A DNA stretch of 64,000 nucleotides from Plazaster borealis (lineage: Eukaryota > Echinodermata > Asteroidea > Forcipulatida > Labidiasteridae). Position numbers and translations under genes: made by a program. Of the stretch, positions 801 to 22,568 are shown in pieces. The stretch's first letter is position 1, and each line of letters opens with the position of its first letter. The stretch lies in the NCBI GenBank assembly GCA_021014325.1, contig CM037470.1, positions 2,046,001 through 2,110,000 on the forward strand. The letters run 5' to 3'. The notes beneath the pieces are model-generated. The model was given only the letters and a program-made list of their open reading frames with translations. It was not told the origin of the DNA and made no database searches.

Positions 801-807
801 GCTTTGG

Positions 808-1375
808 TTATATATAGGGAATATCTAGTAACTCTTTTCTGCACTTGCCAACAGACTGCGTATTTCCACATAAGGACGCTTTACAATGTTTCTTTCCAAC
901 GTTAAAGGGACACGTTGCCCTTGATTGGGCGATTTGAGCTATAAAAGGCATTTTAAAGCGTTCGTTATGAAACGAATATGGTTGGAAAGCTGCTTTAAAA
1001 GTATAATATAATGATTCACACAAATATGCCTCGAAATTGTGTGATTTTTCCTTTTTGTCTTCTTGAACTAACACGGTCCGCCGTTTTGTATAACCAAATT
1101 GTTTTACTCCACAAAATGGCGGACCGTGTTAGTTCACGAAATAAAAGGAGAACCATAACACTTTGAGGCGTATTAGTATGGATGATTATGTTTTACTTTT
1201 AAAACATCTTTCAATTCAGAATGAATGTTTTCAAACGCTTTGTAGAGCCCAAATCGCCCAATCCAAGGCAGGGTGTCCCTTTCAAGCAAAGTGTAACTTG
1301 GAATCAAACAGGCTAAAATGTTCCAATACATGTTAGACTTGGGCGGTCGGTCCCGAGTCCAAGCTATAACTCACC
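808..1375 (-). repeat. duplicated intronic flank of Ig exon E, split by a MITE
   Basis: Read on the minus strand below 1375, this segment matches the downstream intronic flank of exon D (about 1790-1972) and of the + strand exon 2 (10290-10460). Matching stretches include the donor region, a TTGGAACATTT stretch and an AACAGACTG stretch. The match is interrupted by an inverted-repeat element at about 902-1284. It shows that the exon E copy carried its flank with it before the element landed. Confidence 0.65.
902..1284. mobile_element. long-inverted-repeat MITE (AAAGGGACAC termini)
   Basis: The left half, from AAAGGGACACGTTGCC, and the right half, ending in GGGTGTCCCTTT, are imperfect reverse complements over roughly 180 bp each. 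They meet at a palindromic centre around ACACGGTCCGCC / GGCGGACCGTGT. There is no transposase, so this is a non-autonomous foldback element. It sits inside the duplicated flank of Ig exon E, between halves that are continuous in the exon D and exon 2 copies. I cannot define the target-site duplication. Confidence 0.75.
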
Positions 1376-1505
1376 TCTTTGTACTATAAGTTCAGTCGTA
1401 CTATATGCATAGCCATCGTTGGCAATTACTCCACAAGTAAACATTACCGCGTCAGTGGTCCGTAGATTATATATTGTTAAGCTACCGGTTTCTAGATCAA
1501 ACTTA
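1375..1505 (-). pseudogene. Ig exon E, 5'-truncated copy
   Basis: The minus strand encodes the C-terminal half of an Ig domain: FDLETGSLTI, then a stretch with FTCGV (the F-strand cysteine) and TTELIVQRG, ending at a GTGAG donor. It matches exon D closely but lacks the first half, including the B-strand cysteine and the tryptophan. The break falls in an AAGGCTATCT-type short repeat (about 1505-1555) that also lies downstream of D and of + strand exon 2. This suggests the truncation arose by recombination at that repeat. It cannot form a complete Ig fold alone. Confidence 0.7.
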
Positions 1506-1560
1506 GATAGCCTTATCCTAGATAGCCTTAGCCTTAGCCTAGATAGCCTTATCTTTGTCT
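1505..1560. repeat. short tandem repeat at a duplication breakpoint
   Basis: Several imperfect copies of TAGATAGCCTTA/AGCCTTAGCC lie directly at the truncated edge of Ig exon E. The same GATAAGGCTATCT sequence is found once in the + strand copy near 10705. It is a plausible microhomology that produced the truncated exon. Confidence 0.6.
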
Positions 1561-1972: not shown

Positions 1973-2299
1973 CTCTTTCTACGATAAGTTTAGTCGTGTT
2001 AGATGCATATCCATATTCGCCATTTACTCCACAAGTAAAGTTTGCTGCATCGGCGGTCCTTGTATTATGTATTGTTAAGCTACCGGTTTCCAGATCAAAC
2101 TTGAGCTCTCTTGAATAATTGTCAAGACTTCCCTTTAAGCAAGATGCTATGGTTGAGTCATTCATGAGCCATTCGATTTGAACATCGTCATCACTGCATG
2201 GTGGAACTAACGTGCCGTCACTGTGGGTCACATTGCACTTCAGCACGGCGTCGTCTCCCTCAGTAACTTCCACCTTATCGATGGTCGACACGTCAAATC
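1973..2299 (-). CDS. Ig-domain exon D, minus-strand receptor gene
   Basis: This exon encodes one Ig-like domain of about 108 residues. It starts in phase 1 after a TAAG acceptor and ends in phase 1 at a GTGAG donor, the symmetric 1-1 phase typical of Ig exons. Visible hallmarks are DDAVLKC (B-strand Cys), IEWLM (core Trp), SLTI, and ANFTC (F-strand Cys). An extra Cys pair (PPC and SC) flanks the Trp, and there are several N-glycosylation sequons. It is nearly identical to + strand exon 2 (9952-10284), differing at roughly ten residues, so it is a very recent inverted duplicate. The leader exon at 2507-2570 joins in frame. The rest of this gene would lie left of the window. The function is inferred to be an extracellular ligand-binding domain. 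Confidence 0.85.
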
Positions 2300-2506
2300 C
2301 TTATGTTCACAATAAGTGAAATAAATTGATAAATACAAAATATAAAATTAAAATAAAACTTCCCTGAAAAAACCCATTGCCTTTTTAACAGCTTTCACTA
2401 AAACTGAAATTCCCACAAGGGGTATAATTGACGACTATAAAATAATGTAATTAAATGATACACTTGCGGATATTTTCTCATGATCGAAGGTAGTAAGATT
2501 TCTTAC

Positions 2507-2570
2507 CTTTGCAGTAACTCCTCATCGTAAACACCTCAAGTAGAAAACAAATTGCGAGAAAATAGTTCAT
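2507..2570 (-). CDS. candidate signal-peptide exon for the minus-strand Ig receptor
   Basis: On the minus strand an ATG at 2570 opens a 21-codon frame with a hydrophobic core (MNYFLAICFLLEVF). It ends in phase 1 at a good GTAAGA donor. The next Ig exon downstream, D, starts in phase 1, so the join gives Gly-Phe-Asp-Val-Ser followed by the Ig domain. The leader sequence is unrelated to that of the + strand gene although the Ig exons are near-identical, so this duplicate has a different 5' end. A TATA-like run lies only about 20-30 bp upstream, too close for a convincing promoter. Confidence 0.55.
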
Positions 2571-3414: not shown

Positions 3415-3915
3415 CATTGACGATGTTTGACATGTCTATAAAATGGGTCTGGCTAGATTTATTTTTGGATTAACCGCAGTTGAAGGACGCGCTGGTTATT
3501 GTGTGAACAAATCCAAACAATGAGAGAACAAAGAGAAGTTCTCGATTCACCGGGTCGACAAACGTGTGTGAGGGCGTTTCCTCGTTCTAGGTGTTTTTTT
3601 TAATTTTATTTTTTATTTTTTATGCATAATAAAAGAGACGTTACTAAAGACAAAATGAGCAACAATCAACCTTTATCATGGTGAGGCCGTCTTGATTTTC
3701 TCCCATTCAACTCAATGTAATCAAAAATAGTCTGGTTCCTTTTTGTACACTTATTATTAGCTTTCATTACTGTTACTGGATACGGGAACATGACCAAGAT
3801 GGTGGCATCATGGCAAAGGTTTATGAGATAACACAGAGAGGTTCTCAATTTACCGGCTTAACAAACAATATGTCACTGTGTCATGTACATACAATGCATA
3901 CATATTACAACTTAC
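3415..3915 (-). repeat. inverted duplicate of the intron after Ig exon 3
   Basis: Read on the minus strand, this block matches + strand 11358-11757, the intron following Ig exon 3. Shared marks include CACCATCTTGGTCATG, AACCAGACTATTTTT and ATTTTATAGA near the far end. There are small insertions and deletions, including a T/A-rich tract near 3590-3620. With exon C it forms an inverted duplicon of about 0.8 kb. Confidence 0.75.
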
Positions 3916-4243
3916 TTTGTGCAACATTCAAATGAGTAGAGTTAGATTGCACGTAGAATGAGTCATTGGCCGTCCACGTGTAAATCCCTGTGTCATTTCT
4001 CTCCACGCTCACAATAGTGAGAATGCAACTGAGGTTGCTACCATGATACTCGTACTTGTCTTTCTCGCTCGACCCCTCGATATCTTTGCACATGTTATCT
4101 GACAGCGTGACTTTGTCTCTTGACCATTGGAATTGAAACTGACGGTCATGCAGTGGACTGTCTGCAAGCACAGAACACTGCAAACTAACATTACCCCCAA
4201 TGTACGCAGTCTGAAAAAACTGATGTTTTGACTCTGACCTTTT
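3916..4243 (-). pseudogene. Ig exon C, frameshifted copy of receptor exon 3
   Basis: This minus-strand exon is a near copy of + strand exon 3 (11031-11357), with acceptor (TTCTTCAG) and GTAAG donor retained. Two defects are visible. First, near the 5' end a short T-run is one base longer than in exon 3, so the phase-1 frame runs into a stop within about 20 codons; only a shifted frame reads through the rest. Second, the F-strand cysteine (YTC in exon 3) is YTW here, which removes the canonical intradomain disulphide. The rest, including the B-strand Cys, QWSRD and SCILTI, is intact. It looks like a recently dead exon, unless another acceptor restores the frame. Confidence 0.75.
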
Positions 4244-4305
4244 CTGAAGAAAATACAAATAGTCAAGGTTATTTTTTGTTTTAGTTTTCTTTAACCTACT
4301 TTGTT

Positions 4306-4801: not shown

Positions 4802-4946
4802 GAACTCTTCCCAATTTTGAAATGGACTCTATCTATTGTAAGACGACCGTAAAACTGAATTTGACCTCTGATAGAGCCCTTCTTTTAGAAGTCACCTTTC
4901 TTCGGACAGGCTGAGGAAGACACCAGCAATGCATGTCATTACTTAC

Positions 4947-5276
4947 TTCTTTTTACTGTGAGCTCTGTCGTGCTACTACGTTCAGATCCGAACAGACTGT
5001 ATGCATGACAAGTAAAAGTACCCTCATCTGAGACCAGTGTATTAGGTATTGTTAAGCTGCCGGTTACTGGATCAAACCTGAACTCTCTGGGACGATGATA
5101 ATGAAATTCATCTGAGCAGTGTGCTATTAATAAATCGTTCTCATAAAACCAAAGGAGTTCCCGATTGTCAACAAGATCATCGCAGGCAGGCAGTATCGTG
5201 CCCGTAATACGGCACTCTAGCACAGCTTCCTCCCCTTCGACGACTACCAGTTTTGGAAGAGTCGACACCATAATAC
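4947..5276 (-). CDS. Ig-domain exon B, minus strand
   Basis: This is a phase 1-1 exon (acceptor GATAG, donor GTAAGT) encoding one Ig domain: VVEGEEAVLEC (B-strand Cys), LLWFYE (core Trp), SLTIPN, EGTFTC (F-strand Cys) and a terminal TTELTVKR. Extra cysteines (PAC and HC) parallel those of exon D. It is a tandem paralogue of exon A 100 bp upstream and a more distant relative of D. I cannot see a leader or transmembrane exon for A/B, so they may belong to an alternative-exon gene or a partial duplicate. Confidence 0.8.
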
Positions 5277-5375: not shown

Positions 5376-5705
5376 TTCTTTTTACTGTGAGCTCTGTCGT
5401 CGAGCTATATCCAAATCCGAACCATTCTCGTACAAAACAAGTAAAATTACCCTCATCTGAGACCATGATATCAAGTATTGTTAGGCTGGCGGTTTCTGGA
5501 TCAATCCTGATCCCTCTGGGACGATGTCCATGAACATAATTGAAGCAGGATGCTAACAAATAGTCCTCATAAAACCAACCGAATGTCAGAATGTCATCAT
5601 CGCAGACAGGGAGTATCGTGCCATTGGTGTCCGTAACACGGCACTCTAGCACAGCATCCTCCCCTTCGACGACTACCAGTTTTGGAAGAGTCGACACAAT
5701 AATTC
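5376..5705 (-). CDS. Ig-domain exon A, minus strand
   Basis: This phase 1-1 exon (acceptor TTGACAG, donor GTAAGT) encodes an Ig domain with VVEGEDAVLECRV, FGWFYED, SLTILD and EGNFTCFV, ending TTELTVKR. It shares the start (VSTLPKLVVVEGE) and end with exon B and clearly arose by tandem duplication. The domain boundaries and the extra Cys pair match exons B and D. No in-phase leader exon is evident in the 2.5 kb upstream. Both exons are intact and spliceable, so expression is possible. Confidence 0.8.
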
Positions 5706-7235: not shown

Positions 7236-8030
7236 CCTGAATGTAGCATCTAACTTGTAATTAATTGAGGCTACATATACGGTTAGGGTTGAGTTACAGG
7301 TACAGGGTTTGAGCTATATTAAGGTACGGGGTTGGGCTACATTTAGGTACAGGGTTGGGCTACATTTGGGTACAGGGTTGGGCTACATTTGGGTACAAGT
7401 TTGGGCACATTTAGGTACAAGGATGGGCTAAATATACAGAGTAAGGCTACATTTTAGGTACAGGGTTGGGCTACATTAAGGTAGGGTTGGGCTACATTTA
7501 GGTAGGGTTGGTCTACATTTAGATACAGGGGTTGGGCTAAATTTAGGTACAGAGTAAGGCTACATTTAGGTACAGGGGTGGGCTACATTTAGGTACAGGG
7601 TTGGGCTACATTTAGGTACAGAGTAAGGCTACATTTAGGTACAGGGGTGGGCTACATTAAGGTAGGGTTGGGCTCAATTTAGGTACAGAGTAAGGCTACA
7701 GGGGCGGATCCAGGATTTTCCAAACGGGGGGGCGTGAAAATATACCAAGCAGCAAAATGATAAATGAAGTTTGTTGCCCCACTTCTCCCTCCCCTTCTCT
7801 CTCTCCCTCTTTTTTTTTCTTTTCTCCCTTTTTTTTTTTTTTTTAAATATGAAAAGGGGGGCGTGCGCCCCCCCACGCCCCCCTGGATCCGCGCCTGGGC
7901 TACATTTAGGTACAGGGTAAGGCTATATTTAGGTACAGCGGTGGGCTACATTTAGGTACAGGGTTGGGCTACATTGGTCGACTTTAGGTACATGGTTGGA
8001 GATACATTTAGGTATCGGGTAATTTTTCTC
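7236..8030 (+). repeat. 23-bp minisatellite, GGGTTGGGCTACATTTAGGTACA unit
   Basis: About 25 imperfect copies of a roughly 23-bp unit, with GGCTACATTTAGGTACAGGG as its core, run through this block. Some units are a few bases shorter. The array is interrupted by an inserted inverted-repeat element at about 7698-7898. A shorter array of the same unit is at 48420-48640. Confidence 0.85.
7698..7898. mobile_element. short TIR element inserted in the minisatellite
   Basis: The termini GGGGCGGATCCAGGATTTT and CCCCCTGGATCCGCGCCTGG are near-perfect inverted repeats. The interior holds pyrimidine/T tracts. It lies within the minisatellite, so it inserted after the array formed. It has no coding capacity. 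Confidence 0.65.
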
Positions 8031-8560: not shown

Positions 8561-8704
8561 TGATGCACTATTTTTATTTTTTTATTTTTGTTGCAATAAA
8601 ATTCACCGCAAGGTTTCAGATTAAGTTCCTGGAACAAAAAATTATTATTATTATTAACTTGTGGGACTTCCCGAGATTCAGCCCAAAACTTCACTTTCGC
8701 TGAC

Positions 8705-8714
8705 TATATAAATA
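8705..8714 (+). promoter_or_regulatory. candidate TATA box of the Ig receptor gene
   Basis: TATATAAATA lies about 190 bp upstream of the receptor ATG at 8903. That leaves room for a transcription start near 8735 and a 5' UTR of about 165 bases. No other core element is obvious. Confidence 0.5.
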
Positions 8715-8902
8715 TATGCGTGTACATAACACGCAGTTCATACTTCTCGCTCCAGAGACAGTCTCAAACCCAAACCTCCAGTAGTGTGACAGTTTTGTAA
8801 AAAATTGTATTGAGTTTGTTGAGCAAGGAAGACCAAAGTGTATACTCTCCTGGAGATTGTTGGGAGTGCCACCCCCGTGAATCCCGAAGTGTCTTTGCCG
8901 AC

Positions 8903-8957
8903 ATGAAAACCCTGGCGATGATCGCTTGGATTGCGTTGATATGCTGTTACCCAATTG
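8903..8957 (+). CDS. ITIM/ITSM Ig receptor, exon 1: signal peptide
   Basis: The ATG, in context CGACATGAAA, opens an 18-codon hydrophobic leader (MKTLAMIAWIALICCYPI). It ends one base into a Gly codon at a GTGAGT donor (phase 1). Exon 2 starts in phase 1 at 9952, giving Gly-Val-Ala-Ala-Val-Asn-Val-Ser before the Ig domain, so the leader targets the receptor to the ER. An upstream TATA box supports this as the true first coding exon. Its protein sequence is unrelated to the leader of the minus-strand copy (2507-2570). Confidence 0.8.
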
Positions 8958-9099
8958 GTGAGTTTAAAAAAAAGAAAATCTCAAACACAAACAAATGTTC
9001 TGTCTTGACTGTGATTCACTCAATTTGCTTGTTCCTAGAATTAACCTTTTTGGTGGATATGGTGGACACTATAGGAGTGCACTGTTTGGTTTGGGTGTA

Positions 9100-9560
9100 C
9101 AGAGACAAATTAACCCCCAAACTAATAATAGTGTCATTGTGTCCAACATCTCAAAATGGCTTATGGCCACACCGCTGAGAAATATTACGTAGTAATATTC
9201 CTTTTTTTCTTTTTCTTTTCGGCTTCATTTTTGTTTAAATGAATCTGTGAATAAAACTGTGTTTCCTACTTTTTTCGCCACCCACTTGCATGCACAACGT
9301 CAGCAACACCAGTACCACCCCCCCCCCCTCCCAATAGAGACAAATATACCCCCAAACTAATAGTGTCATTGTGTCCACCATAATCTCAAAATGGCTTATG
9401 GCCAAACTGCTGGGAAATATTAGGTAGTTATCTTCCTTTTGTTTTCTTATCTTTTCGGTTTCTTTATTTAAAAAAAAAACATGTGAATGAAACTTTGCTT
9501 CATTTCTTTGTTCGCCACCCACTTGTATGCAAGACGACAGCGACACCAGTAACCCCCCCC
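9100..9560 (+). repeat. tandem duplication of about 230 bp in receptor intron 1
   Basis: Two adjacent units (about 9100-9335 and 9336-9560) share CCCCCAAACTAATA, GTCATTGTGTCCA, CTCAAAATGGCTTATGGCC, GCCACCCACTTG and a terminal poly-C run. They differ by scattered changes and no coding frame is shared. Confidence 0.75.
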
Positions 9561-9689
9561 CCCCTTGTTTATCCTCCCTGGACGCATTACTGTTTTAGTC
9601 CTCCAACGTTTGTGCAAATTTTTGAAGAGACTTGTCATTAGTGGCTGAAATGTTTGTCTTTTGACCCCAGATTTTATAAATTTATTTGT

Positions 9690-9895
9690 TTAATTGAAGT
9701 AACTTTAACTAGTAAATTTGTGGATGCAATCCTGCAAACTCTTATTGAAGGAGTGTTGGCTCTGAAAAGAGCCGATGTGGTCTTTACACATGGTTGTATC
9801 CGCAAGTTTATTAGTTATACTTACTTCTTATTTTCCACACCGTGCAAAGCTTCAAACATCACTTATTTTTTATTTTTTCAATCGTTTTAGCATTC
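9690..9895 (-). repeat. dispersed repeat carrying a histone-type hairpin, copy 1
   Basis: On the minus strand the hairpin GGCTCTTTTCAGAGCC (9758-9773) matches the animal histone mRNA 3' stem-loop exactly. Its surroundings (GTTGTATCCGCAAGTTTA and GTGCAAAGCTTCAAACATCACT on the + strand) recur around a second hairpin at 33947. The hairpin is therefore part of a dispersed element of at least 150 bp, not a local histone gene. It lies in receptor intron 1. Confidence 0.6.
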
Positions 9896-9951
9896 TGAAG
9901 ACATGTTGGTGAGTTCAAAAAATAACTAAGGATGTATCTTTTGGATAACAG

Positions 9952-10284
9952 GTGTAGCTGCGGTTAATGTTTCTACCATCGATAAGGTGGAAGTTACTGA
10001 GGGAGACGACGCCGTGCTGAAGTGCATTGTGACCCACAGTAACGGCACGTTAGTTCCACCATGCAGTGACGATGTTCAAATCGAATGGCTCATGAATGAC
10101 TCAACCATAACATCTTGCTTAAAGGGAAGTCTTGACAATTATTCAAGAGAGCTCAAGTTTGATCTGGAAACCGGTAGCTTAACAATACATAATACAAGGA
10201 CCGCCGATGCAGCAAACTTTACTTGTGTAATAAATGGCAAATATGGATATACATCTAACACGACTAAACTTATCGTAGAAAGAG
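9952..10284 (+). CDS. ITIM/ITSM Ig receptor, exon 2: first Ig domain
   Basis: This phase 1-1 exon has acceptor GATAACAG and donor GTGAGT. The domain has GDDAVLKC (B-strand Cys), VQIEWLM (core Trp), GSLTIHN, and a variant F strand reading DAANFTC instead of the usual DxGxYxC. A second Cys pair (VPPC and TSC) brackets the Trp and could form an extra disulphide. Sequons NGT, NDS, NYS, NFT and NTT suggest heavy N-glycosylation. It is almost identical to exon D on the opposite strand (1973-2299), and the match continues about 420 bp into the following intron. The role is inferred: the distal, ligand-contacting domain of a cell-surface receptor. Confidence 0.85.
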
Positions 10285-10710
10285 GTGAGTTATAGCTTGG
10301 ACTTGGGACAAACCGTCCAAGTCTCACATGTATTGGAACATTTAAGCCTATTTTATCCCAAGTTATACTTTGCTTTAACGTTGAAATGAAACATTGTAAT
10401 GTATCCTTATGTGAAAATAAGACTTGTATTACAGTCTGTTGGTGAGAAGAGAAATTTGACATTTTCCCAAATTAAATAATTATTCTATCAACACCAATTC
10501 AGTTTTACTATATTAAGTAATAAAGTAACATGATATCGTCCATGAAGAGTTTTGCATTATATTTGGAACCAGTGGCTAAACATTTATTTTAAGTGGTTTA
10601 GCTTTTACTGTGCGTGTGATACCACTATTATGTACACATACTTGTGTAAGTTTCTTTCTTCCCGCCAAATAAAGAAGATTGTTTGGATCCACTTACAAGA
10701 CCAAAGATAA
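10285..10710 (+). repeat. intron flank shared with minus-strand exon D
   Basis: This intron segment is the reverse complement of about 1555-1972 with only scattered differences, ending at GATAAGGCTATCT. With exon 2 it makes an inverted duplicon of about 0.75 kb whose homology starts near the exon 5' edge. Confidence 0.8.
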
Positions 10711-11030
10711 GGCTATCTAGCAAAAGGTTGGTGTCAGGGGTCATAAAGCAATTGATAATGGGGACGCTCTGCTTCGTTGCGCAAAAAACAGACAAACAAA
10801 CACAAACCCCAACAAACATTAATTAACAAACATCTTTGTGGGTTTACAATCCTTGAAAAGTAAAGGCATGATATTGATATAGAAACAAAATTTTACAAAA
10901 TGAAGAAAACAATTTTTCAAACTGCTTGTTTGGTTTGATGGGACTACGGAACTGTGGAAGTAAACAAAAACACCGATATGCTGAACATAAGCTAATCACC
11001 TGGAATTATTATATATATATTTTTTTCCAG

Positions 11031-11357
11031 AAAAAGTCAGAGTCAAAACGTCAGTACTTCAGACTGCGTACATTGGGAGTAATGTTAGTTTGCAGTGTTC
11101 TGTGCTTGCAGACCGCCCACTGCAGGACCGTCAGTTTCAATTCCAATGGTCACGAGACAACGCCACGCTGTCAGATAACATGTGCAAAGATATCGAGGGG
11201 TCGAGCGAGAAAGACAAGTATGAGTATCTTGATGGCAACCTCAGTTGCATTCTCACTATTCTGTGCGTGGAGAGAAATGACACAGGGATTTACACGTGCA
11301 CGGTCAATGACTCATTCTACGTGCAATCTAACTCTACTCATTTGAATGTTGCAGAAA
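11031..11357 (+). CDS. ITIM/ITSM Ig receptor, exon 3: second Ig domain
   Basis: This phase 1-1 exon has a strong acceptor (TTTTTTCCAG) and a GTAAGT donor. It encodes an Ig domain with GSNVSLQC (B-strand Cys), FQFQWSRD (core Trp), SCILTI, and the classical DTGIYTC F strand. Additional cysteines (NMC, LSC) may pair, and sequons include NVS, NAT, NLS, NDS and NST. It joins exon 2 in frame as Gly/Glu-Lys-Val. A broken inverted copy of this exon and its flank lies at 3415-4243. It is the membrane-proximal Ig domain, directly before a short stalk. Confidence 0.85.
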
Positions 11358-11760
11358 GTAAGTTATAATATGTACGCCACCATCTTGGTCATGTTCCCTG
11401 TATCCAGTAACAGTAATTGAAGCTAATATTAGGTGTACAAAAAAGGAACCAGACTATTTTTCCTTCCAGCCTCGGTTTGATTACATTGAGTTGAATGGGA
11501 GAAAATCACGATGGCCGCACCATGATAAAGGTCTACTGTTGCACCTTTTGTTTTAAGCACCAAAGATCGCAAACCACCTAGAACGAGTAAACACCCTCGC
11601 ACATGTTTGTCGACCCGGTAAAGTAAATCGAGAACTTCTCTTTGTTATCCCATTGTTTGGATTTGTTCACATAATGATCAGCGTGTCCTCCAACTGTGGT
11701 TATTCCAAAAAAATAATCTAGCCAGACCCATTTTATAGATATGTCAAACACTCATAGACG

Positions 11761-12035
11761 CACAGCTCTGTGCTGCATACACTCTGTGGACATTCCTCTG
11801 TTATGTGCACTTAGAACAAAAGAAGTCCACAGAGTGTAGGGACTTGAAACACAATGTGGACTAACACAGCGCCATTTTTATTTTTTATTTTTTAATTTTT
11901 TTACAGTGTTGAACAGAACAAAGGAATATCCACAGAGTGTATGCAGCAAAGAGCTGTGTGTAAATCAACATAGTGTTTCAAGTCACTTCATTGTGTGGTG
12001 GAATTCTTTTGTTCTCAGGTCCACACTTAGTATGT
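11761..12035. mobile_element. palindromic MITE (CACAGCTCTGTG...), intronic
   Basis: The left arm CACAGCTCTGTGCTGCATACACTCTGTGG is answered by a right arm CCACAGAGTGTATGCAGCAAAGAGCTGTG near 11930-11958. Further homology extends to CAGGTCCACACTTAGTA at 12035. A relative at 55640-55825 shares CATAGTGTTTCAAGTC and CTCAGGTCCACACTT. Confidence 0.6.
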
Positions 12036-12727
12036 TTCATCCCCCGAACTCGGGCCTAGGATCCGACTCATGGCTGTGGACTCCAATAGTGACAGTGACA
12101 ATCTTTGTGATTTTTCGCACTCGTTTCGGAAATTGGTGGATTCCATTTAAAGCACAATACTATAGACCATGTAAGCCAATGTACAAAAATGGTTACTTTG
12201 TACATTCCAGGGCATTACCTGGCAGGCAAGATACTGCACTGGTCAAATAGGAAATTGTACATTGGGTGTGCATATAAATTCAAGAATTATAAAAATAACA
12301 GCTGGACAAGTTTTGAGCTATGCCCCCTTTATTCATATCAAAACTTGATAACAAAAAACAGATCAGAAAATATAGGAAATAAGATTTTTTATTTCACTGG
12401 GCTGTGTACAAATTATGCCTGCAGGAAGTCCAGGCTCTGTGACTCTTTTGTGAAAACATGACGTTACATGATCTATATAAATCAACAATCAATGATACAC
12501 AATAATATTCATAATATCTTTGGTAAAGAAAAATTTGTTGCAATCAAAATAGTGTGATTGGTTTTTCCCTATACACAGAATGTATAACAAGCGCTGTGCA
12601 TTTTATTCACGATGCTCAAATTCTTAGTTAAGACAACAGCAAAGGAAACAGTCACCATAGGTTATTCATGCTTTCTTTTGTTGTCATTAAAGCCGCAGTC
12701 GGGAAAAGTACATCTATTTAAAGCAAT
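12036..12727. other. receptor intron sequence, nothing recognised
   Basis: This is AT-rich intron between exons 3 and 4. The open frames present have no domain features. Confidence 0.5.
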
Positions 12728-13079
12728 TAAAGGGTGTGTACAACATAGGTAATTGCCAAAGACCTGTATCCAAACTCGATGTGACCCAACATAATACATG
12801 CAATAACAAACCTGTGAAAGTTTCAGCTAAATCGGTCTTCGGAGTCATGAGAAAACAGTGGAAAAAAACCTTATGTGTTTTAACTTTTTTTCAAACATCG
12901 GAATTTATCCTGCGGGATAAATACGACTATTTTACTCATTTTGTAAAAACTATGGCATTTCAAGCAAAACTATTTCAAGGGAAGTTTTCGACCATGACCG
13001 TCTTTATACCATGTGAGTTATGTGCAAATCTGTGAGCATTTATATTTTCATTCTTACCAATGTTGTACACACCCTTTAA
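12728..13079. mobile_element. TTAA-type MITE, subfamily GGGTGTGTACAAC
   Basis: The element runs from TTAAAGGGTGTGTACAACAT to ATGTTGTACACACCCTTTAA, about 350 bp, with near-perfect terminal inverted repeats within TTAA ends. A second copy is at 34656-35003. It has no coding capacity. The TTAA ends are compatible with piggyBac-type mobilisation (inference). Confidence 0.85.
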
Positions 13080-13149
13080 AACAACAGCAAAGGAAACGAG
13101 CGTCAGTTATGGTTTTGTTTAATGCTTTGTTTCGTTATTATTGATGCAG

Positions 13150-13239
13150 GAGTTATAACTACAAAAAAGCCGAGGTCCGAAACTGTAAGTACGTATCCAG
13201 AAACACCAACAGTAATCTCTACAGGAGCCACTGCGAGTT
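13150..13239 (+). CDS. ITIM/ITSM Ig receptor, exon 4: Thr/Ser/Pro stalk
   Basis: This is a 90-base exon with acceptor TTGATGCAG and donor GTATGT. Phases in and out are 1, consistent with exon 3. It encodes about 30 residues rich in Thr, Ser, Pro and Val (VITTKKPRSET...TPTVISTGATAS), typical of an O-glycosylated membrane-proximal stalk. An earlier donor (ACTGTAAGT) inside the exon could give a shorter form but would break phase. It lies immediately upstream of the transmembrane exon in the transcript model. Confidence 0.65.
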
Positions 13240-13298
13240 GTATGTACAGTGTCATATTTTGTTTACTAAAGTTTCTTAAGTACTTTTGTAACTCTTTC

Positions 13299-13672
13299 TT
13301 AAAGGCACTGAACACGTTTGGAAATTGTCAAAGACCAGTGTTATCACTGGGTGTATCCCAACATATGCATAAAATAACAAGCCTGTGAAAATTTGGGCTC
13401 AATTGGTCATCGAAGTTGCAAGAAAATGCTGAAAGAAAAAACACCCTTGTTGTACAAATTTGTGTGCTTTCAGAAAGGAATAAAAACTTCTTGCAAGAAG
13501 TTTTTATTATTTTAGTGAGAAATTACCTCTTTCTCAAAAACTACGTTACTTCAGAGGGAGTCGTTTCCTACAATGTTTTATACCAACAACACCTCTCCGT
13601 TGCCTGTTACCAAGTAAATTTTTATGCTAATATTTGTTTTGAGTCATTACCAAACGTGTACGATACCTTTAA
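13299..13672. mobile_element. TTAA-type MITE, subfamily GGCACTGAACACG/GGTATCGTACACG
   Basis: It runs from TTAAAGGCACTGAACACG to CGTGTACGATACCTTTAA. The body carries TTCTTGCAAGAAGTTTTTATT (a central hairpin) and ACTACGTTACTTCAGAGGGAGTC. It sits in the receptor intron between the stalk and transmembrane exons. Confidence 0.85.
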
Positions 13673-13857
13673 AACTTCTTCACTGCATCGACGTTTGTTT
13701 TTTGTGACCATAATATTAAAAACACATTCTTAACACGGTGCTGCCATTTTAAATGCCGTTCAAAAACAACACCTCCGAGATGAGGCCATGATAGTCTGGT
13801 TTCTTAAACACTATGTTGTAGTGTATACAAGGAGTACGGCTAAGGGAACTACGAGAG

Positions 13858-13986
13858 CAACTGAACCGGTCATGACAGAGATGACTTTAACCAGTCCTGC
13901 GCTACTTCTAGTCTCTGTGCTCTTTTTGGTTCTACTCTGTGCTGTACTAAGCCTAGTGGTTTGGTTTTATTGGATCCGTAGGAAAG
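13858..13986 (+). CDS. ITIM/ITSM Ig receptor, exon 5: transmembrane segment
   Basis: The frame encodes a short Thr-rich run, then about 25 hydrophobic residues (ALLLVSVLFLVLLCAVLSLVVWFYW, roughly 13899-13973) and a basic stop-transfer IRRK, ending in phase 1 at a GTACGC donor. This is a type I single-pass helix with no acidic or basic residue inside, so it need not pair with an ITAM adaptor. The acceptor is uncertain: 13858 keeps phase 1 from the stalk exon, but its pyrimidine tract is poor. The frame stays open further upstream. Confidence 0.7.
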
Positions 13987-14189
13987 GTACGCATGAAGCA
14001 CTTGTATCGAGTCTATGTTTCGTGCCCATTGGCGTTAAAATACAGTTATTATATAAGTCATGGCTTTCGTTGAGTTTACTTGTTGTCGTTTATTGTTGTT
14101 CTCCATCAGTGACTCTATGTACTTGTTCGAGAAACAACCCCAAAATATTATACGGAAACTTTAATATCGACCATGAATACGTCGAATAA

Positions 14190-14818
14190 AAGCAACCCTT
14201 ATAAGGCCTTATAGTGAACCGAAACAACCTTAAAGGAAAGTGTTATCATAGCTGTATATTTTGGGGGGAAATGTGAAGTAGGATTCAATGTAAAATGTCG
14301 TTCAACAAACGACCTGTTTACATTTCAGTCCTTGACTGCAGGGAAAAACGAGAGCATAATTGGTGACAATTGTAAACTATCAGACAAATCTTGTTGTATA
14401 AAAACTCACACGTTCAAACGATGGTTGGCCGATCATCTCTCCAAAATGATACAACGTTGCATTTTAATTGAACTTAAACAACACCTGGCAAAACGGTTTC
14501 ACTTGATACTTGGGAATAATCATTTACTTTCAGTCAAGTAAGTTACTTTGTAGTAAATTGGAAGTACATTTTGTTCATGCCTGCAAATGATGTGATCTAC
14601 CTTTAGTTGTATAAAAAACATTGCAGACTGTTTAAAAACAAAATACAAGCGCGTTCAAAAATTATTTACAATGCTAAGGGAATGACAGTCTAACTGATTA
14701 TTGTCAGATTCAAAAGCTACAATTACTAAGATCGTAAAGGTTTGGGTTTTCTGCAAATTGTTACGCAAGAGTGATCGGATTATGTATGTTTAAGATTTAT
14801 TTTATGTTGTACATGAGT
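14190..14818. other. receptor intron, no exon resolved
   Basis: One strong-looking acceptor (TTTACATTTCAG near 14328) is followed by a short Cys-containing open stretch, but no phase-compatible donor was found. I leave it as intron. Confidence 0.4.
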
Positions 14819-15187
14819 TTAAAGGCATCGTACACGTTTGGTAATTGTCAAAGACCAGTGTTCTCATTTGGTGTATCCAACATATGCATAAAATAGCCTG
14901 TGAACATTTGGGCTCAATTGGTCATCGAAGTTGCAAGAAAATGATGAAAGAAAAAACACCTTTGTTGTTCACATTTGTGTGCTTTCAGATAGGAATAAAA
15001 ACTTCTTGCAAAAAGTTTTTATTATTTTAGTGAGAATTTACCTCTTTCTCAAAAACTACGTTACTTCAGAGGGAGTCGTTTCTCACAATGTTTTATACTA
15101 TCAACAGCTCTCTGTTGCTCGTTACCAAGTCAGTTTTTATGCTAATATATATTTTGAGTAATTACCAAACGTGTACGATGCCTTTAA
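14819..15187. mobile_element. TTAA-type MITE, subfamily GGCATCGTACACG
   Basis: It runs from TTAAAGGCATCGTACACG to CGTGTACGATGCCTTTAA, with near-perfect terminal inverted repeats and the family's central TTCTTGCAAAAAGTTTTTATT hairpin. It is intronic in the receptor gene. Confidence 0.85.
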
Positions 15188-15248
15188 AACAAACATTACA
15201 CTGCGATAAAAAAAGTGATGTCTGTTTTTGTTTCATTCTCAATCCCAG

Positions 15249-15270
15249 GTGGTCACGAACAGAACAACCA
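15249..15270 (+). CDS. ITIM/ITSM Ig receptor, exon 6: micro-exon of the tail
   Basis: This is a 22-base exon with a strong acceptor (TTCTCAATCCCAG) and a consensus GTAAGT donor. It enters in phase 1 and leaves in phase 2, which matches exon 5 before it and exon 7 after it. It encodes Gly-Gly-His-Glu-Gln-Asn-Asn-Gln. The support comes from splice signals and phase, not homology. It is cytoplasmic, just after the stop-transfer sequence. Confidence 0.55.
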
Positions 15271-15952
15271 GTAAGTTATAAGTTATATGTTTATTTATTT
15301 ATTATTCATAATAGGTTTTCAGAAAAGGAACAAATAATAGTTTAATTAACACGCAATATTCAAATCCACGCATGTTTCCCTAATTCATTCAATCTAGTTT
15401 TCGTTTACGTACTATTACATTCGATTTCGCTTTCGTGCACAATGATTTCGTTCTTCTCATTCAGGTTCGTTAATCATTTTATTTCAACTCCAGAAACCCA
15501 AGGCTACATTTTCATTATTGAATTTCTACTACCTATTTACAATTTATGAAATTAATTGGTTGACCAGGCCTCAGTCTTGCTGTTGCCTTTGAAGAAATGA
15601 AAAGACATTTGCGACTTAATGAATTCGAATGATCTTATTTGACCAGTTATTGTTTAAAAAAAATTTTTGAATTACTCCTTTTGACTGTTGAATACTGATG
15701 CAACGGAGCATTAATTTTCAGACTAAATTGAATGAGCCGGGTGTTAAATTGAATAGTGTCTGTTGCTATTGGCCAGAAAAAGATGCAATACACCAGCATT
15801 ACACAACGTATGGAACTCAACCTTGATGACAAACGGAAGTTTCGATGTTGACCTTCCCCTATGATGCACTGTGGGATGCATGACACCTCAAGGGTCAACA
15901 CTTGGTGGCGCACTTTATTCCAAAACACATAACATTTACTTCTTTTCTTCAG

Positions 15953-16038
15953 GTACTCTGTGCATTTCAGACGCAATTCCAATCTGACGCCTGAGCAGCA
16001 AGCCCTCACGGCACCGGAAGAATCCGAAATTGTCATAG
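15953..16038 (+). CDS. ITIM/ITSM Ig receptor, exon 7: cytoplasmic tail
   Basis: This 86-base exon has a good acceptor (CTTTTCTTCAG) and a GTATAA donor, phase 2 in and 1 out. Only this frame fits and it is open throughout. It encodes YSVHFRRNSN, LTPEQQALTAPEE, and SEIVI, a polar charged stretch suited to a cytoplasmic tail. One tyrosine is present but not in an ITIM. Confidence 0.6.
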
Positions 16039-16080
16039 GTATAATTATTACTTTGGTATTTCTTATGCGGCTCCTTTGCA

Positions 16081-16410
16081 TTAAAGGCACTGAACACGTT
16101 TGGTAATTGTCAAAGGCCTGTGAAAATTTGGGCTCAATTGGTCATCGAAGTTGCAAGAAAATGATGAAAGAAAAAACACCCTTGTTGTACAAATTTGTGT
16201 GCTTTCAGATAGGAACAAAAACTTCTTGCAAGAAGTTTTTTATTATTTTAGTGAGAAAATTTTCTTCCTCAAAAACTACGTTACTTCAGAGGGAGTCGTT
16301 TTCTACAATGTTTTATACTATCAACAGCTCTCCGTTGCTTGTTACCAAGTAAGTTTTTATGCTAATATTATTTGTTTTGAGTCATTACCAAACGTGTACG
16401 ATACCTTTAA
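16081..16410. mobile_element. TTAA-type MITE, internally deleted
   Basis: It runs from TTAAAGGCACTGAACACG to CGTGTACGATACCTTTAA. Compared with the 13299 copy it lacks about 40 bp after CAAAGGCCTG. It directly follows exon 7 in the intron. Confidence 0.85.
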
Positions 16411-16741
16411 AGACGAAAATATTACTTATAACAATTTGCTGCTCAGTAGAAATGAGCAGGATACCATTTACCAGGATACCAATGTACATTAGACATGGTA
16501 GTTTGGCTGGTATACGCATATTTTTGTTGTGCTTAGCAATTTGTTGTAAGCAGCTCTATGAAATTGGGCCATGATGATGACTGGCCGGTAACTCTGGGTG
16601 TCAATGCAGTGCACGACAAGTAGCCAATCACGCATTTAAATCAATGTAACAGAGTCAAGACAAGAATTATTTTCATTTCACTTTCATAATAGAGTGTAAA
16701 TATCTTCCCTTTGAAACTTCCCCTTCCTCTTCCACTTTAAG

Positions 16742-16855
16742 ATACGAGTAACATTTACGACGAGAGTCCTACGTCGGTGAGACACGTGACTTCCGCTCCA
16801 ACAGCGCCATCATCGACGAACACCAACCTAAATGTCGGAGTTCAACATACAACCA
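16742..16855 (+). CDS. ITIM/ITSM Ig receptor, exon 8: cytoplasmic tail
   Basis: This 114-base exon has a pyrimidine-rich acceptor (CTTCCACTTTAAG) and a GTAATA donor, phase 1 in and out. The other two frames contain stops, so the frame is fixed. It encodes DTSNIYDESP followed by a Ser/Thr/Pro-rich linker ending QHTT. The tyrosine in NIYDES has an acidic context that could be a kinase or SH2 site, but it is not an ITIM. Confidence 0.6.
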
Positions 16856-16969
16856 GTAATAAGACTTTTTTTAACTTTGGAAGGGATATAGCTAGGCTTG
16901 ATATGGGGTTGGAACATAAAAGAGAGCAGGAAAAGGGTGGAGAGGGATTAATGCATTTTGTTGTTGCTT

Positions 16970-17045
16970 CATCTATTTATTTATTTATTTATTTATTTAT
17001 TTATTTGTTTGTTTATTTATTAATTATTTTATTTATTTATTATGG
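16970..17045 (+). repeat. (TTTA)n microsatellite
   Basis: A run of about 15 TTTA units with minor variants lies in the receptor intron. Confidence 0.95.
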
Positions 17046-17736
17046 TTTTTCTTTATCTGTTTATGTTTTGACAAACAAAATACGGATTGTTATTGTTAGA
17101 GCCTACATTATGGCAATATCACCAAAAAGCCGTCCGTTTGCACAAAGCGTTACGTCATAAGGCTGTATACATGAAAACCTAACAGGCAGTCAAAGATTGA
17201 GACACGCCGACATGTACAAACACCGCATGGCTTTCGGCCGTGGCCTTGACCAGGTTGCTATAAGGCCAAATAAAAATAAAAACATGTTTAGCGTCCCCGC
17301 CCGCTTCCTTTTTAGAGGCCGCCTCCTTTTGTTTTTGTTGTCCCCCTTTTTAAAGAAAAAAATGATACATTTTTAACGATCCCTGACGATTAATTTTTTG
17401 TATATAAATAAGTTAGTATTTTAGACTTTAGCACACCGAAAAAAGAAAACCGAAAAAAGCTGGCAACCATCTTGAAAAAAATCTCGGCCGGTTGTCTCGA
17501 AAAATGTGTCAAATGTGTCAATAAAAAAAGGCCCTCCTCCTTCCTTTTTTCAAAAAGGCAGGACGCTAAACATGTTTTTGTTTTGCTTTTTGCCTAAATT
17601 CCTACTTTTCAACACAAACGCTGTAGCAAACATCCGAATATTTTGGGAAACTATAGAGAAAAAGATAATAGCATTCAAAATTATAAAGATTCTACTCTCA
17701 CATTGACACAGCTTCTATATACTCTCACGTTGACAG

Positions 17737-17900
17737 GAAATGGGGTCCAATATGCTAGAGTCACCCTACGAAATAAAGCAAGAACGTGGTATCATCCCGC
17801 AAACAGCAGAGCAGGAACTCAGCCTAAACGAGTACGTACAAGCTTTACCCTTGCTCAATTTCAATTTAAAACTACCAGACGCTCTGTGGCAACACAATAG
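17737..17900 (+). CDS. ITIM/ITSM Ig receptor, exon 9: tail exon with VQYARV motif
   Basis: After acceptor GTTGACAG two frames are open across this exon. The phase-1 frame required by exon 8 reads Arg-Asn-Gly-VQYARV-Thr-Leu. VQYARV (17745-17762) fits the ITIM consensus (I/V/L)xYxx(I/V/L). This frame meets TAG at 17898. The phase-0 frame (NMLESPYEIKQERG...) reads to an ATAG/GTATAA donor. Thus either the receptor ends here, or an internal donor (GTGGTA at 17786 or GTACAA at 17836) links to the final exon. The 3' boundary is unresolved, and alternative isoforms are plausible. Confidence 0.5.
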
Positions 17901-18158
17901 GTATAATAAAAGTTTGCAAACAGATGAAAGACATCCTTAGGGACAGAGCTGTGTATTTCGAGAGAGTTGCGACATCATTGCATGTAAATGTCTATCCACC
18001 AATGAAACCATTGGTTTTGTTAGACCAATGCCTGTCTTTGTAATCATTGATATAGACAGGGAACCAGTCTAGAGAGTAAAGCAGAAGTAAAGAAATGGTA
18101 AAGATGTTTGTTTGTTTGTTGTTACGCTATATTTTTATTGAATTTTGTGATCAAACAG

Positions 18159-18183
18159 AATCTGGATCAGATTCCGGGTCACG
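18159..18183 (+). CDS. optional small tail exon
   Basis: After acceptor GATCAAACAG, a 25-base stretch ends at a weak GTGACC donor. In phase 2 it encodes IWIRFRVT and leaves in phase 0, matching the final exon. It is compatible with exon 9 ending at 17785 (phase 2). The evidence is only splice phase and the acceptor, so it may be intron. Confidence 0.25.
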
Positions 18184-18277
18184 GTGACCTTGGAGGAAAA
18201 ACAAAATTATGTTATTGACCTTGATAGATCTGGTTCAACTTTGATCCGGGACCCTCATGTTTCCATTAATATCACAG

Positions 18278-18505
18278 ATAGCCCGTTCACAGGAGGAACT
18301 CATCTATATCGACATACAACACGTACGGGAGCATCCCAGGAACGCCCCGCCGATCCGTACGGAACCCCCCACTGAATACGCTGAAATCCTGCACATCACG
18401 GCATCCGGTTCGACTTTAGCCGGACTTAATGGCTTTGGTGCAGAAGGGGGACAAGTGTTACTTAGAACCGGTGTGGCAGGAGATTCTGTACCCAGGAGAT
18501 ACTAA
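18278..18505 (+). CDS. ITIM/ITSM Ig receptor, final exon: LIYIDI and TEYAEI motifs
   Basis: The exon starts at 18278 or 18293 (both acceptors CACAG, phase 0) or at 18282 (ATAG, phase 1), and stops at TAA 18503. It encodes EELIYIDIQH, a Pro/Arg-rich spacer, then PPTEYAEILH and a Gly-rich end. LIYIDI (18299-18316) fits the ITIM consensus, which recruits SHP-1/SHP-2 or SHIP through SH2 domains. TEYAEI (18371-18388) fits the ITSM consensus TxYxx(V/I), which binds SAP-type adaptors or SHP-2. The spacing of 24 residues between the tyrosines resembles vertebrate SLAM-, SIGLEC- and PD-1-type tails. No such activity is shown here; it is inferred from the motifs. Confidence 0.7.
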   Translation: MARSQEELIYIDIQHVREHPRNAPPIRTEPPTEYAEILHITASGSTLAGLNGFGAEGGQVLLRTGVAGDSVPRRY

Positions 18506-19527
18506 GTTTTCTCAAGCCACGAGATCGTATATCATGAGACTTTAATACACATGTACTGTTGAACGAAAACCCTAAACAATTTGTTAGTCATGCGCAAATT
18601 TATTGAATTGTGCGATAACTATATTTAGGCCGCCACGCTGTAGGAATCCAATAACAATGTACATAATTTATGATAACTTGGTAGACCGAAGTAAGTCCAA
18701 ACTCCAACTAGATCTTCGCCATAGTGCATAAACAATACAGGGAGGATCTATCAACCAACAAGAACGTCACATTATCAAGTCTATCATAGCACCACGTTTT
18801 GGCAATGGTGCCAAGATTTACCAATCAGCCTTTCCAATGAAATATGAAAAATTGCATTAACGCATGCGTACAGACAATAATTGGTTGTGCACTAGGCAGA
18901 CGCACAAACGCGTATGCCTCACACACCACCATCCCCATATAAAAAAAGGCCCGTAATTTGTTAACTTTGCCAAGTTTTTGAAAAGTTGTGTTTTTATCTA
19001 CACTTTTAGAACCATATCTTTTGTACACAGATAGAGAACGCGATATTAATGACGTCAGACGTATCAAAGACTAATAAACCAGATGCACATCTAGAAATCA
19101 AAACAGAATATAACTGTAAATGAAATTGGAAGGTCTGATGTATACTTTCTGAGGTATGTTCATAACAAGATTGACTAATTAAATCCTGCTACAGATTATG
19201 AACATGTGCCTTACAAAATGTAAATTAATTTTGTTACCGACATTTTGTTTGAAGAAATGTATGTTGCTGTCACAACAGTACATGCCTGTATGGTGGCTGT
19301 ATGAAATTCAAAAATCTCAGTTGCGTTTCTTGTTCCACTAATGACGTCACATCATGATCAGGGCCTGGTCATTTTTTAGTGCTCCTGGAAAGCATTATTT
19401 TAAACAAAAGTACCTTTTTGAAATAAATATAAACCATTAGGGGAAAGTTAAAGTACACTGATTCATTATTTTATTAAATACAAACTTCGACGTGACCTAG
19501 TAGACAAGGTAGCACGGCACACATGCT
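18506..19527. other. 3' flank of the receptor gene
   Basis: No further exon is seen. A consensus poly(A) signal AATAAA lies at 19073-19078, about 570 bases after the stop; a nearer weak variant (AATACA) is near 18543. Either could end the receptor transcript. Confidence 0.45.
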
Positions 19528-21770: not shown

Positions 21771-22568
21771 TTACTTTTTCTTTTTAGGTGCGTCTTTGCC
21801 AGCAGCCTTTCCACCTTTAGATGTCTTAGTAGCCTTTACTGGCACCTTGGCTGGTTTCTTGCTGGTCTTTGCAGCCGGTTTAGCATCTGGCGACATAGCG
21901 GCAGATGGCTTCGCAGCCGATTTCTTCGTTGGCTTCGCCGCTGCAGCTTTCTTCGCCACCGGAGAAGTGGTTGTCTTTTTCTTACCGGCGACAGACTTTG
22001 TCTTTGGCTTGATCATCTTCGGGGTGCGGAGTGGGGAGTGGGACTTGCTCAACCGACTCCGGACCTTCTTGGATTTGCTGACTCGTGGTGTAGCGCTCAC
22101 CGAGCGTGCACGGGACCGGGGGAAGGGTTTCTTGCCGGTCACCTTCGGTGACGTTGACCGGCCACGCGGATTCTCAGCTGCTTTACCCTTCACTGTTTTT
22201 TTAGTCTTCAGCTCCGCCACCTTCTTTGCGCGGGTCTTAGCAGCAGGTTTGGGCGCTTTGGGCAGCTTGTATCGTCCCACAAGAACCGCTGTGATGTCAG
22301 CCTGGTCTCTCGGTCGCTCAATAGCCCCCGTGGCCAGTGCCTTCGTGAATGCGTTCTTAAGGTGTACCCCTAGTTTAGCATCCGGATAATTGGCACCTAT
22401 CCACTTCTTTACTGATAGCACGCTTGTGCCTTTCCGTGGGTTATCGATGCTGTCTCGTAGAGCCTCCATGAGCATGTCGATAGTTTTTGGATGGGTAGCC
22501 ACAGGCCGCGCTTTCTTGCCAATATCTTCAGCGCCCCCACCATTCTCAAATACGGTAGAGTCAGCCAT
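21771..22568 (-). CDS. H1: histone H1 (linker histone)
   Basis: This intronless 265-residue protein binds linker DNA at the nucleosome dyad and compacts chromatin in the nucleus. Residues about 24-102 form the winged-helix GH5 domain (HPKTIDMLMEALRDS, SVKKWIGANYPDAKLG, LKNAFTKALATGAIE, VGRYKLPK). The C-terminal tail from about 103 is rich in Lys, Ala and Pro and carries CDK-type sites (TSPK 139-142, RTPK 181-184, TSPVAK, SPDAK). The ATG at 22568 has a good context (ATAATGG), and the frame is far more GC-rich than the flanks. I see no histone 3' hairpin downstream of the stop and no other histone gene nearby. It is probably a replacement-type H1 with a polyadenylated mRNA (inference). Confidence 0.95.
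   Translation of the reverse strand: MADSTVFENGGGAEDIGKKARPVATHPKTIDMLMEALRDSIDNPRKGTSVLSVKKWIGANYPDAKLGVHLKNAFTKALATGAIERPRDQADITAVLVGRYKLPKAPKPAAKTRAKKVAELKTKKTVKGKAAENPRGRSTSPKVTGKKPFPRSRARSVSATPRVSKSKKVRSRLSKSHSPLRTPKMIKPKTKSVAGKKKTTTSPVAKKAAAAKPTKKSAAKPSAAMSPDAKPAAKTSKKPAKVPVKATKTSKGGKAAGKDAPKKKK

What the first reader, a model, noticed from the sequence alone, without database searches (positions are those of the whole stretch)
8705..18505. Invertebrate Ig receptor with ITIM and ITSM-type tail motifs
Seen: a phase-compatible chain of leader, two Ig domains, Thr/Ser stalk, one hydrophobic helix with a basic stop-transfer, and several small tail exons. The final exon has LIYIDI and TEYAEI, and exon 9 has VQYARV. 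Established: ITIM and ITSM motifs recruit SH2 phosphatases and SAP-type adaptors in vertebrate SLAM, SIGLEC and PD-1 receptors. Inference: this is an inhibitory or switch-type immune receptor in an echinoderm, a setup best known from vertebrates.
Basis: partly seen in the sequence, partly recalled or inferred. Interest (0 to 1): 0.85.

Follow-up and report, generated by a model that had tools for sequence, protein, structure and literature searches.

The report
Sea-star Ig receptor with inhibitory tail
A sea star genome carries a gene for a cell-surface receptor with two immunoglobulin domains and a tail bearing the same kind of tyrosine switches that vertebrate immune brakes use; the tail motifs are kept in a related sea star, but what the receptor does has not been tested.

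Summary
Ten exons on the + strand (8903-18505) join in phase into a 504-residue type I membrane protein: signal peptide, two Ig domains, Thr/Ser stalk, one transmembrane helix, 184-residue tail. A predicted Asterias rubens protein, LOC117301704, is 70% identical over 93% of it and reads across eight of the nine exon junctions. The block with LIYIDI (ITIM) and TEYAEI (ITSM-type) is 47/49 identical, against 293/431 elsewhere. The third motif, VQYARV, is VQCAQV in A. rubens. Five further family Ig exons lie on the opposite strand, one 90% identical to Ig1, one decayed, one truncated.

Best reading: an inhibitory-type receptor whose paired phosphotyrosines recruit an SH2 phosphatase. This is inferred, not shown. 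The SAP 'switch' part is unsupported. ITIM-bearing Ig receptors are already reported in Botryllus and Hydractinia, so the kind is known. Clear relatives of this receptor were found only in Asterias, within the limits of three capped searches.

The parts
8705..8711 (+). TATA-box-like sequence (TATATAA) 198 bases before the start codon
   Evidence: sequence; no transcription start site data
8903..8957 (+). exon 1, start codon and signal peptide MKTLAMIAWIALICCYPIG, ends in phase 1
   Evidence: not confirmed by P0001, whose model starts elsewhere; two minus-strand leader-like exons of the same phase support the pattern
9952..10284 (+). exon 2, Ig domain 1 (I-set-like, extra Cys pair 56/74)
   Evidence: 66% identical to P0001
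11031..11357 (+). exon 3, Ig domain 2 (V/I-set-like)
   Evidence: 73% identical to P0001
13150..13239 (+). exon 4, Thr/Ser/Pro stalk
   Evidence: reading across both ends matched by P0001
13822..13986 (+). exon 5, rest of stalk and transmembrane helix (helix about 13899-13973) with IRRK stop-transfer
15249..15270 (+). exon 6, 22-base tail exon
   Evidence: junction matched by P0001 (NNQY.VHF)
15953..16038 (+). exon 7, tail, 26 of 28 residues identical to P0001
16742..16855 (+). exon 8, tail, contains SNIYDES (not an ITIM; aligned with SSIYQEL in P0002 and P0003)
   Evidence: tail homology to the paralogue is not significant pairwise
17737..17831 (+). exon 9, tail, VQYARV (17745-17762), Tyr403; Cys in P0001
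18278..18505 (+). exon 10, tail end with LIYIDI (18299-18316, Tyr439), TEYAEI (18371-18388, Tyr463) and stop
   Evidence: residues 427-475 (which begin three codons before exon 10) are 47 of 49 identical to P0001
6796..6859 (-). leader-like exon of a divergent family member (MNILNILYVTLVFFNKICCVK), phase 1 donor
   Evidence: inferred from sequence
5376..5705 (-). Ig domain exon of the divergent family member
4947..5276 (-). second Ig domain exon of the divergent family member
3914..4243 (-). degenerate copy of Ig domain 2: one-base insertion and F-strand Cys codon changed to Trp
2507..2570 (-). leader-like exon MNYFLAICFLLEVFTMRSYCK of a further family member, phase 1 donor
1973..2299 (-). Ig domain exon 90% identical in protein to Ig1 of the main gene
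1367..1501 (-). truncated copy of the second half of the Ig1 exon

Best explanation
A single-pass Ig receptor of a sea star related to Asterias, made as one spliced product of the ten exons. Two glycosylated Ig domains bind an unknown surface ligand. On engagement a Src-family kinase phosphorylates Tyr439 (LIYIDI) and Tyr463 (TEYAEI), 24 residues apart. The doubly phosphorylated tail then recruits a tandem-SH2 phosphatase (SHP2/PTPN11 type, possibly a SHIP-type one instead) that dampens activating signals in the same cell, probably a coelomocyte. Shown here: gene structure in the DNA, domain order, motifs and their conservation in A. rubens. Inferred: expression, glycosylation, phosphorylation, phosphatase recruitment, inhibition, cell type. 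VQYARV is an accessory site that can be lost.
For: In-phase ten-exon chain; Ig domains; A. rubens predicted protein LOC117301704 reads across eight of the nine junctions, Ig1 through the tail; ITIM/ITSM block 47 of 49 identical versus 293 of 431 elsewhere (Fisher p 8e-6) and versus 89 of 124 in the rest of the tail (p 3e-4), residues facing a gap dropped, block edges chosen after seeing the alignment; a faster-changing ectodomain beside a slow-changing tail end, as in vertebrate inhibitory receptors (recalled). An amphioxus receptor with ITIM-type tyrosines binds SHIP1 and to a lesser degree SHP1/2 in human T cells (PMC8211107, abstract and passages). Botryllus ampullae express homologues of nearly every protein of the ITAM/ITIM pathway (PMC12065747 passages). 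The fit of the 24-residue spacing to tandem-SH2 binding and the likeness of the pYID(I/L) core to known SHP2 ligands are recalled, not tested.
Against: No RNA, no protein, no binding data. The comparison of the tail rests on one A. rubens model. One of the three motifs has lost its Tyr in A. rubens, and the paralogue's VAYADV (A. amurensis, P0003) is VAFADV in A. rubens (P0002), so single sites are not strictly kept. The same motifs also fit the YxxPhi endocytosis signal (recalled rule). No SHP2 or SHIP orthologue of this species was looked up. Shuffling alone gives one ITIM and one ITSM in 1.8% of tails. The PDB sequence and fold matches of the Ig domains are generic.
Confidence: 0.6

Rival explanations
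1. Ig adhesion or guidance receptor whose YIDI, YAEI and YARV are mainly YxxPhi sorting signals for endocytosis; immune inhibition plays no part.
For: All three motifs also fit YxxPhi (sequence; rule recalled). The best PDB sequence hits are titin, Dscam, contactins and FGF receptors, generic I-set proteins, with antibody light chains and JAM-A further down the 60 shown of 165. No expression data.
Against: Sorting signals need only YxxPhi, yet the residues at -2 (L, T) and the whole stretch around both tyrosines are conserved, 47 of 49. Ectodomain change and local gene duplication fit immune receptors better than guidance receptors (judgement).
Confidence: 0.2
2. Docking receptor that recruits an SH2 phosphatase or other SH2 protein for a positive signal (growth, spreading, phagocytosis), as SHP2 does downstream of many growth-factor receptors.
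For: SHP2 is positive in many pathways (recalled); motifs alone do not give the sign of the signal.
Against: No YxxM or YxN docking sites among the seven tail tyrosines (contexts); the ITIM plus ITSM pair is typical of inhibitory receptors in vertebrates (recalled).
Confidence: 0.13
3. SLAM-like switch receptor using a SAP-type adaptor on TEYAEI.
For: TEYAEI fits TxYxx(V/I).
Against: Only one such motif; SAP-type adaptors recalled as vertebrate only, not searched; Ig1 has the canonical Cys pair that the first SLAM domain lacks (recalled).
Confidence: 0.03
4. Artefact: motifs by chance in a wrongly joined gene model.
For: Short motifs; shuffled tails give one ITIM and one ITSM in 1.8%.
Against: A. 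rubens predicted protein with the same joins and 78% identity over 92% of the tail.
Confidence: 0.04

Closest known systems
Asterias rubens LOC117301704 (P0001, uncharacterised predicted protein)
   Same: Same domain order and joins from Ig1 on, 70% identity over 93%, identical LIYIDI and TEYAEI
   Different: VQYARV is VQCAQV; no signal peptide of this kind in its model; different last residues
Asterias rubens LOC117301669 and an A. amurensis homologue (P0002, P0003)
   Same: Ig1 65-66% identical; leader, two Ig domains, helix; tail with SIYQEL (ITIM pattern) in both and VAYADV in P0003
   Different: Ig2 24% identical; tails not significantly alike (BLASTP E 61, P0003 tail only); no LIYIDI or TEYAEI
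Botryllus schlosseri fester co-receptors (FcoR)
   Same: Invertebrate type I Ig receptors encoded in one locus, tails that can encode ITIMs or hemITAMs (PMC12065747 passages)
   Different: V-type Ig, sushi, two C2 Ig domains; no sushi here; FcoR sequences were not compared directly
Hydractinia Alr family
   Same: Invertebrate Ig-superfamily proteins with ITIM/ITAM motifs in an allorecognition complex (as stated in PMC12065747; the primary paper is not held)
   Different: No Alr sequence was compared here; searches listed no cnidarian protein
Amphioxus BbLcLRR
   Same: Non-vertebrate receptor with ITIM-type tyrosines that recruits SHIP1 and SHP1/2 (PMC8211107)
   Different: Leucine-rich-repeat ectodomain; its ITSM-like TRYLRV lies in the predicted ectodomain
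Vertebrate PD-1, SIGLEC, SLAM-family receptors
   Same: ITIM and/or ITSM in the tail of a single-pass Ig receptor (recalled)
   Different: No ectodomain relation beyond generic Ig similarity was seen

Membership tests
ITIM-bearing inhibitory Ig receptors (functional class) | Single-pass membrane protein with extracellular Ig domains | tested here: met
   by prediction
ITIM-bearing inhibitory Ig receptors (functional class) | (S/I/V/L)xYxx(I/V/L) in the cytoplasmic tail, conserved | tested here: met
   LIYIDI conserved in P0001; VQYARV not conserved
ITIM-bearing inhibitory Ig receptors (functional class) | Phosphorylation-dependent recruitment of SHP1/SHP2/SHIP and inhibition | not testable with these tools
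   needs bench work
SLAM family (CD2 subset) | TxYxx(V/I) in the tail | tested here: met
   one motif, TEYAEI
SLAM family (CD2 subset) | First Ig domain without the canonical disulfide (recalled) | tested here: not met
   Ig1 has Cys43 and Cys110
SLAM family (CD2 subset) | Binding of SAP/EAT-2 | not tested
   no binding data; presence of SAP not searched
PD-1 / CD28 family | One Ig V-set domain (recalled) | tested here: not met
   two Ig domains
SIGLEC | Sialic-acid-binding V-set domain, detectable sequence relation (recalled) | tested here: inconclusive
   no SIGLEC in the 60 shown of 165 PDB sequence matches; sialic-acid site not examined
Botryllus FcoR | Sushi domain beside the Ig domains | tested here: not met
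   no sushi domain among the 10 Pfam matches at E up to 1
Asterias LOC117301704 family | Full-length homology with the same domain order | tested here: met
   70% identity, 93% coverage, E 6e-206

The most novel reading that the evidence does not exclude
The locus is a sea-star paired-receptor (possibly allorecognition) cluster: divergently oriented Ig receptors share a near-identical Ig1 domain (90% in protein, with amino-acid changes about as frequent as silent and intronic ones) but carry different tails, with this gene as the conserved inhibitory arm that sets the threshold for coelomocyte attack on foreign cells.
Probability: 0.12. Interest if true: 0.85.

Novelty: new member of a known kind. 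Interest (0 to 1): 0.52.

Why it matters
Sea stars mount immune responses to grafts (Karp and Hildemann 1976, as cited in PMC2248247) and their coelomocytes show allorecognition (PMC13428168, PMC9763293), but the passages I saw name no receptor. Receptors with ITIMs are reported in cnidarians, tunicates, amphioxus and vertebrates. An echinoderm one, with a nearly unchanged ITIM-ITSM block on a faster-changing Ig ectodomain, would extend the design to deuterostomes outside chordates and give a concrete gene to test.

Tried and rejected
Chance or mis-joined exons: spoken against by the A. rubens protein. The strong-looking donor at 13185 in exon 4 was rejected because it would break the frame (35 bases instead of 90; sequence) and because P0001 reads on past that point. 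A transmembrane exon for the minus-strand relatives: a hydropathy scan of minus-strand 1-5000 (mean above 2.2 over 19 residues) passed one segment, at 2678, in a short stretch flanked by stops, which I did not take as an exon; the tails may lie beyond the window's left end. Relatives outside Asterias: the profile search added only a rhinoceros CEACAM-like protein at E 6.6e-4, 23% identity over 41%, taken as generic Ig similarity; the tail search gave only P0001 among 741 candidates at E up to 1. Searches scored only the 7997 and 7996 candidates sharing most words, and all three searches only proteins of limited length, so absence elsewhere is not proven. Structure: the Ig1 model failed (mean pLDDT 35); the Ig2 model is middling (69) and the first 50 of its Foldseek matches are generic Ig domains (sDscam, FGFR, B7-H4, BTN3A1, antibody V domains), so no ligand inference was drawn. 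Homology between the tails of the two paralogue groups was considered from the alignment, but pairwise BLASTP (most of the window tail against the P0003 tail) is not significant (E 61). The ITIM-ITSM block has no meaningful PDB match (one at E 0.93). A megablast of 8700-18600 against plasmids gave nothing. In P0001 the ITIM pattern also matches VWYYLI at residue 309, at the membrane end of the helix; I did not count it. One further Ig-profile hit at 37620-37537 (E 0.47) is below the threshold and was dropped. The species of the window was not identified: no row or 47 was marked as the window's own, and the nearest protein is only 70% identical to A. rubens. Of 10 other open frames scanned with Pfam, 4 matched (histone H1 and three of the Ig exons) and 6 did not; the rest of the window was not annotated.
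Full report
What was checked. I rebuilt the gene exon by exon. Ten exons with nine GT-AG introns join in phase into one frame of 504 residues: signal peptide, Ig1, Ig2, a stalk rich in Thr and Ser (22 of residues 239-298, a count that includes the first residues of the helix), a helix with peak mean hydropathy 3.2, IRRK, and a tail of 184 residues with seven tyrosines. Pfam finds two Ig domains well above the curated cut-offs. There are 12 N-glycosylation sequons in the first 300 residues.

Support for the exon joins. A search of 5.77 billion proteins gave three hits at E up to 1 among the 7997 candidates scored. The best, P0001, is the predicted A. rubens protein LOC117301704: 70% identity over 93% of the query. 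It reads across eight of the nine junctions, from Ig1 to the last exon. It does not show transcription, and the exons of P0001 itself were not seen. P0001 lacks my exon 1; its model begins with MVDTLGVHC, which matches a stretch at window 9059-9091 inside my first intron. I prefer exon 1 because it encodes a signal peptide and because two minus-strand relatives have leader-like exons of the same phase.

Are the motifs more than chance? Shuffling the tail 200,000 times gave at least one ITIM and one ITSM in 1.8%, and at least two ITIMs plus one ITSM in 0.17%. Conservation is the better evidence. Residues 427-475, holding LIYIDI and TEYAEI, are 47 of 49 identical to P0001, against 293 of 431 aligned residues elsewhere (Fisher p 8e-6; 24 residues facing a gap dropped) and 89 of 124 in the rest of the tail (p 3e-4; 11 dropped). 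The block edges were chosen after seeing the alignment, so these p values are optimistic. Exon 7 of the tail is also well kept (26 of 28), so the motif block is not the only slow part. Against the reading: VQYARV is VQCAQV in A. rubens, so only two of the three motifs are kept, and VAYADV of the A. amurensis paralogue is VAFADV in A. rubens. No ITAM pattern was found in any of the four proteins.

Surroundings. Seven Ig exons of this family lie in the window, all between 1.3 and 11.4 kb: two on the plus strand and five on the minus strand (the profile was built from 11 domains, five of them from this window, so five of the seven matches are by construction). Two minus-strand Ig exons at 5705-5376 and 5276-4947 follow a leader-like exon at 6859-6796, head to head with the main gene. 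Another leader-like exon (2570-2507) precedes an Ig exon (2299-1973) that is 90% identical in protein to Ig1. A copy of Ig2 at 4243-3914 is decayed (one-base insertion, F-strand Cys to Trp), and 1501-1367 is a truncated Ig1 copy. Between Ig1 and its 90% copy (106 codons) there are 8 amino-acid-changing and 3 silent differences (dN 0.033, dS 0.042), and the following intron differs at 11 of 419 bases (0.026). Amino-acid changes are thus about as frequent as neutral ones, which fits relaxed or diversifying selection; the numbers are too small to separate these, or to exclude that the copy is dying. No convincing transmembrane exon was found on the minus strand in 1-5000, so the tails of these relatives, if any, lie outside the window.

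Spread. A profile search (7996 candidates scored) added only a rhinoceros CEACAM-like protein at E 6.6e-4, which I take as generic Ig similarity. A search with the tail alone (741 candidates) gave only P0001. Within these limits clear relatives are known only from Asterias: two in A. rubens and one in A. amurensis. The window's species was not identified; the six requests to search its own genome did not complete.

How it most likely works. Ligand binding by the Ig domains leads to phosphorylation of Tyr439 and Tyr463, 24 residues apart, and to recruitment of a tandem-SH2 phosphatase, which dampens a co-engaged activating receptor. Only the anatomy and its conservation are shown. [quoted passage not shown] That the pYID(I/L) core resembles known SHP2 ligands is recalled. 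A switch through SAP has no support here. Endocytic sorting and positive SH2 docking remain as rivals.

What is known. PMC12065747 (passages) reports canonical ITIM and hemITAM motifs in an Ig-superfamily receptor family of the Botryllus fuhc locus and says such motifs were also found in candidate genes of the Hydractinia alr locus. PMC8211107 (abstract and passages) reports an amphioxus LRR receptor whose ITIM-type tyrosines inhibit T-cell signalling, binding SHIP1 and, to a lesser extent, SHP1/2. PMC2248247 (passages) cites sea-star graft responses. PMC9763293 (abstract start and passages) and PMC13428168 (passages) treat sea-star allorecognition; the passages shown name no receptor, and 'receptor' occurs nowhere in the held main text of PMC9763293. 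Searches for ITIM with echinoderm and immunoglobulin (23 papers), sea star (1) or sea urchin (19), and for ITSM with ITIM and invertebrate (9), listed no paper whose title describes an echinoderm ITIM Ig receptor; only titles, abstract beginnings and some passages were seen, and the library holds open-licence papers only.

Verdict. It is a new member of a known kind (ITIM-bearing Ig receptors of animals) in a phylum where these searches showed none, and part of a locally duplicated family.

Noticed in passing
window 21774-22568, minus strand: Single-exon linker histone H1 gene (Pfam Linker_histone, E 4.5e-10).
   Followed up: partly
window 4322, 4764, 13312, 14832, 16094, 28690, 37453, 51963, 54927, 61974, 63459: Dispersed repeat: 11 matches (up to 3 mismatches) to a 25-base sequence, none in 100 shuffles; by eye the intron copies end in the inverted form of their start, like a MITE, and one pair of arms (4308-4451, 4659-4802) is 94% complementary.
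   Followed up: partly
window 7298-7975 and 48464-48617: Minisatellite of 23-base units (AGGTACAGGGTTGGGCTACATTT) between the head-to-head genes, and a similar unit again at 48.5 kb.
   Followed up: no
window 1281-4215 versus 9964-11711: Seven inverted repeat pairs of 83-98%: pieces of the main gene's Ig exons and introns lie in scrambled order on the minus strand.
   Followed up: partly
window 45341-46321: Tandem array of 130-base units, about 7.7 copies.
   Followed up: no
P0001 start and window 9059-9091: The A. rubens model starts with MVDTLGVHC; a stretch MVDTIGVHC lies in the first intron here and by eye could splice in phase to Ig1: an alternative start or a model error.
   Followed up: partly
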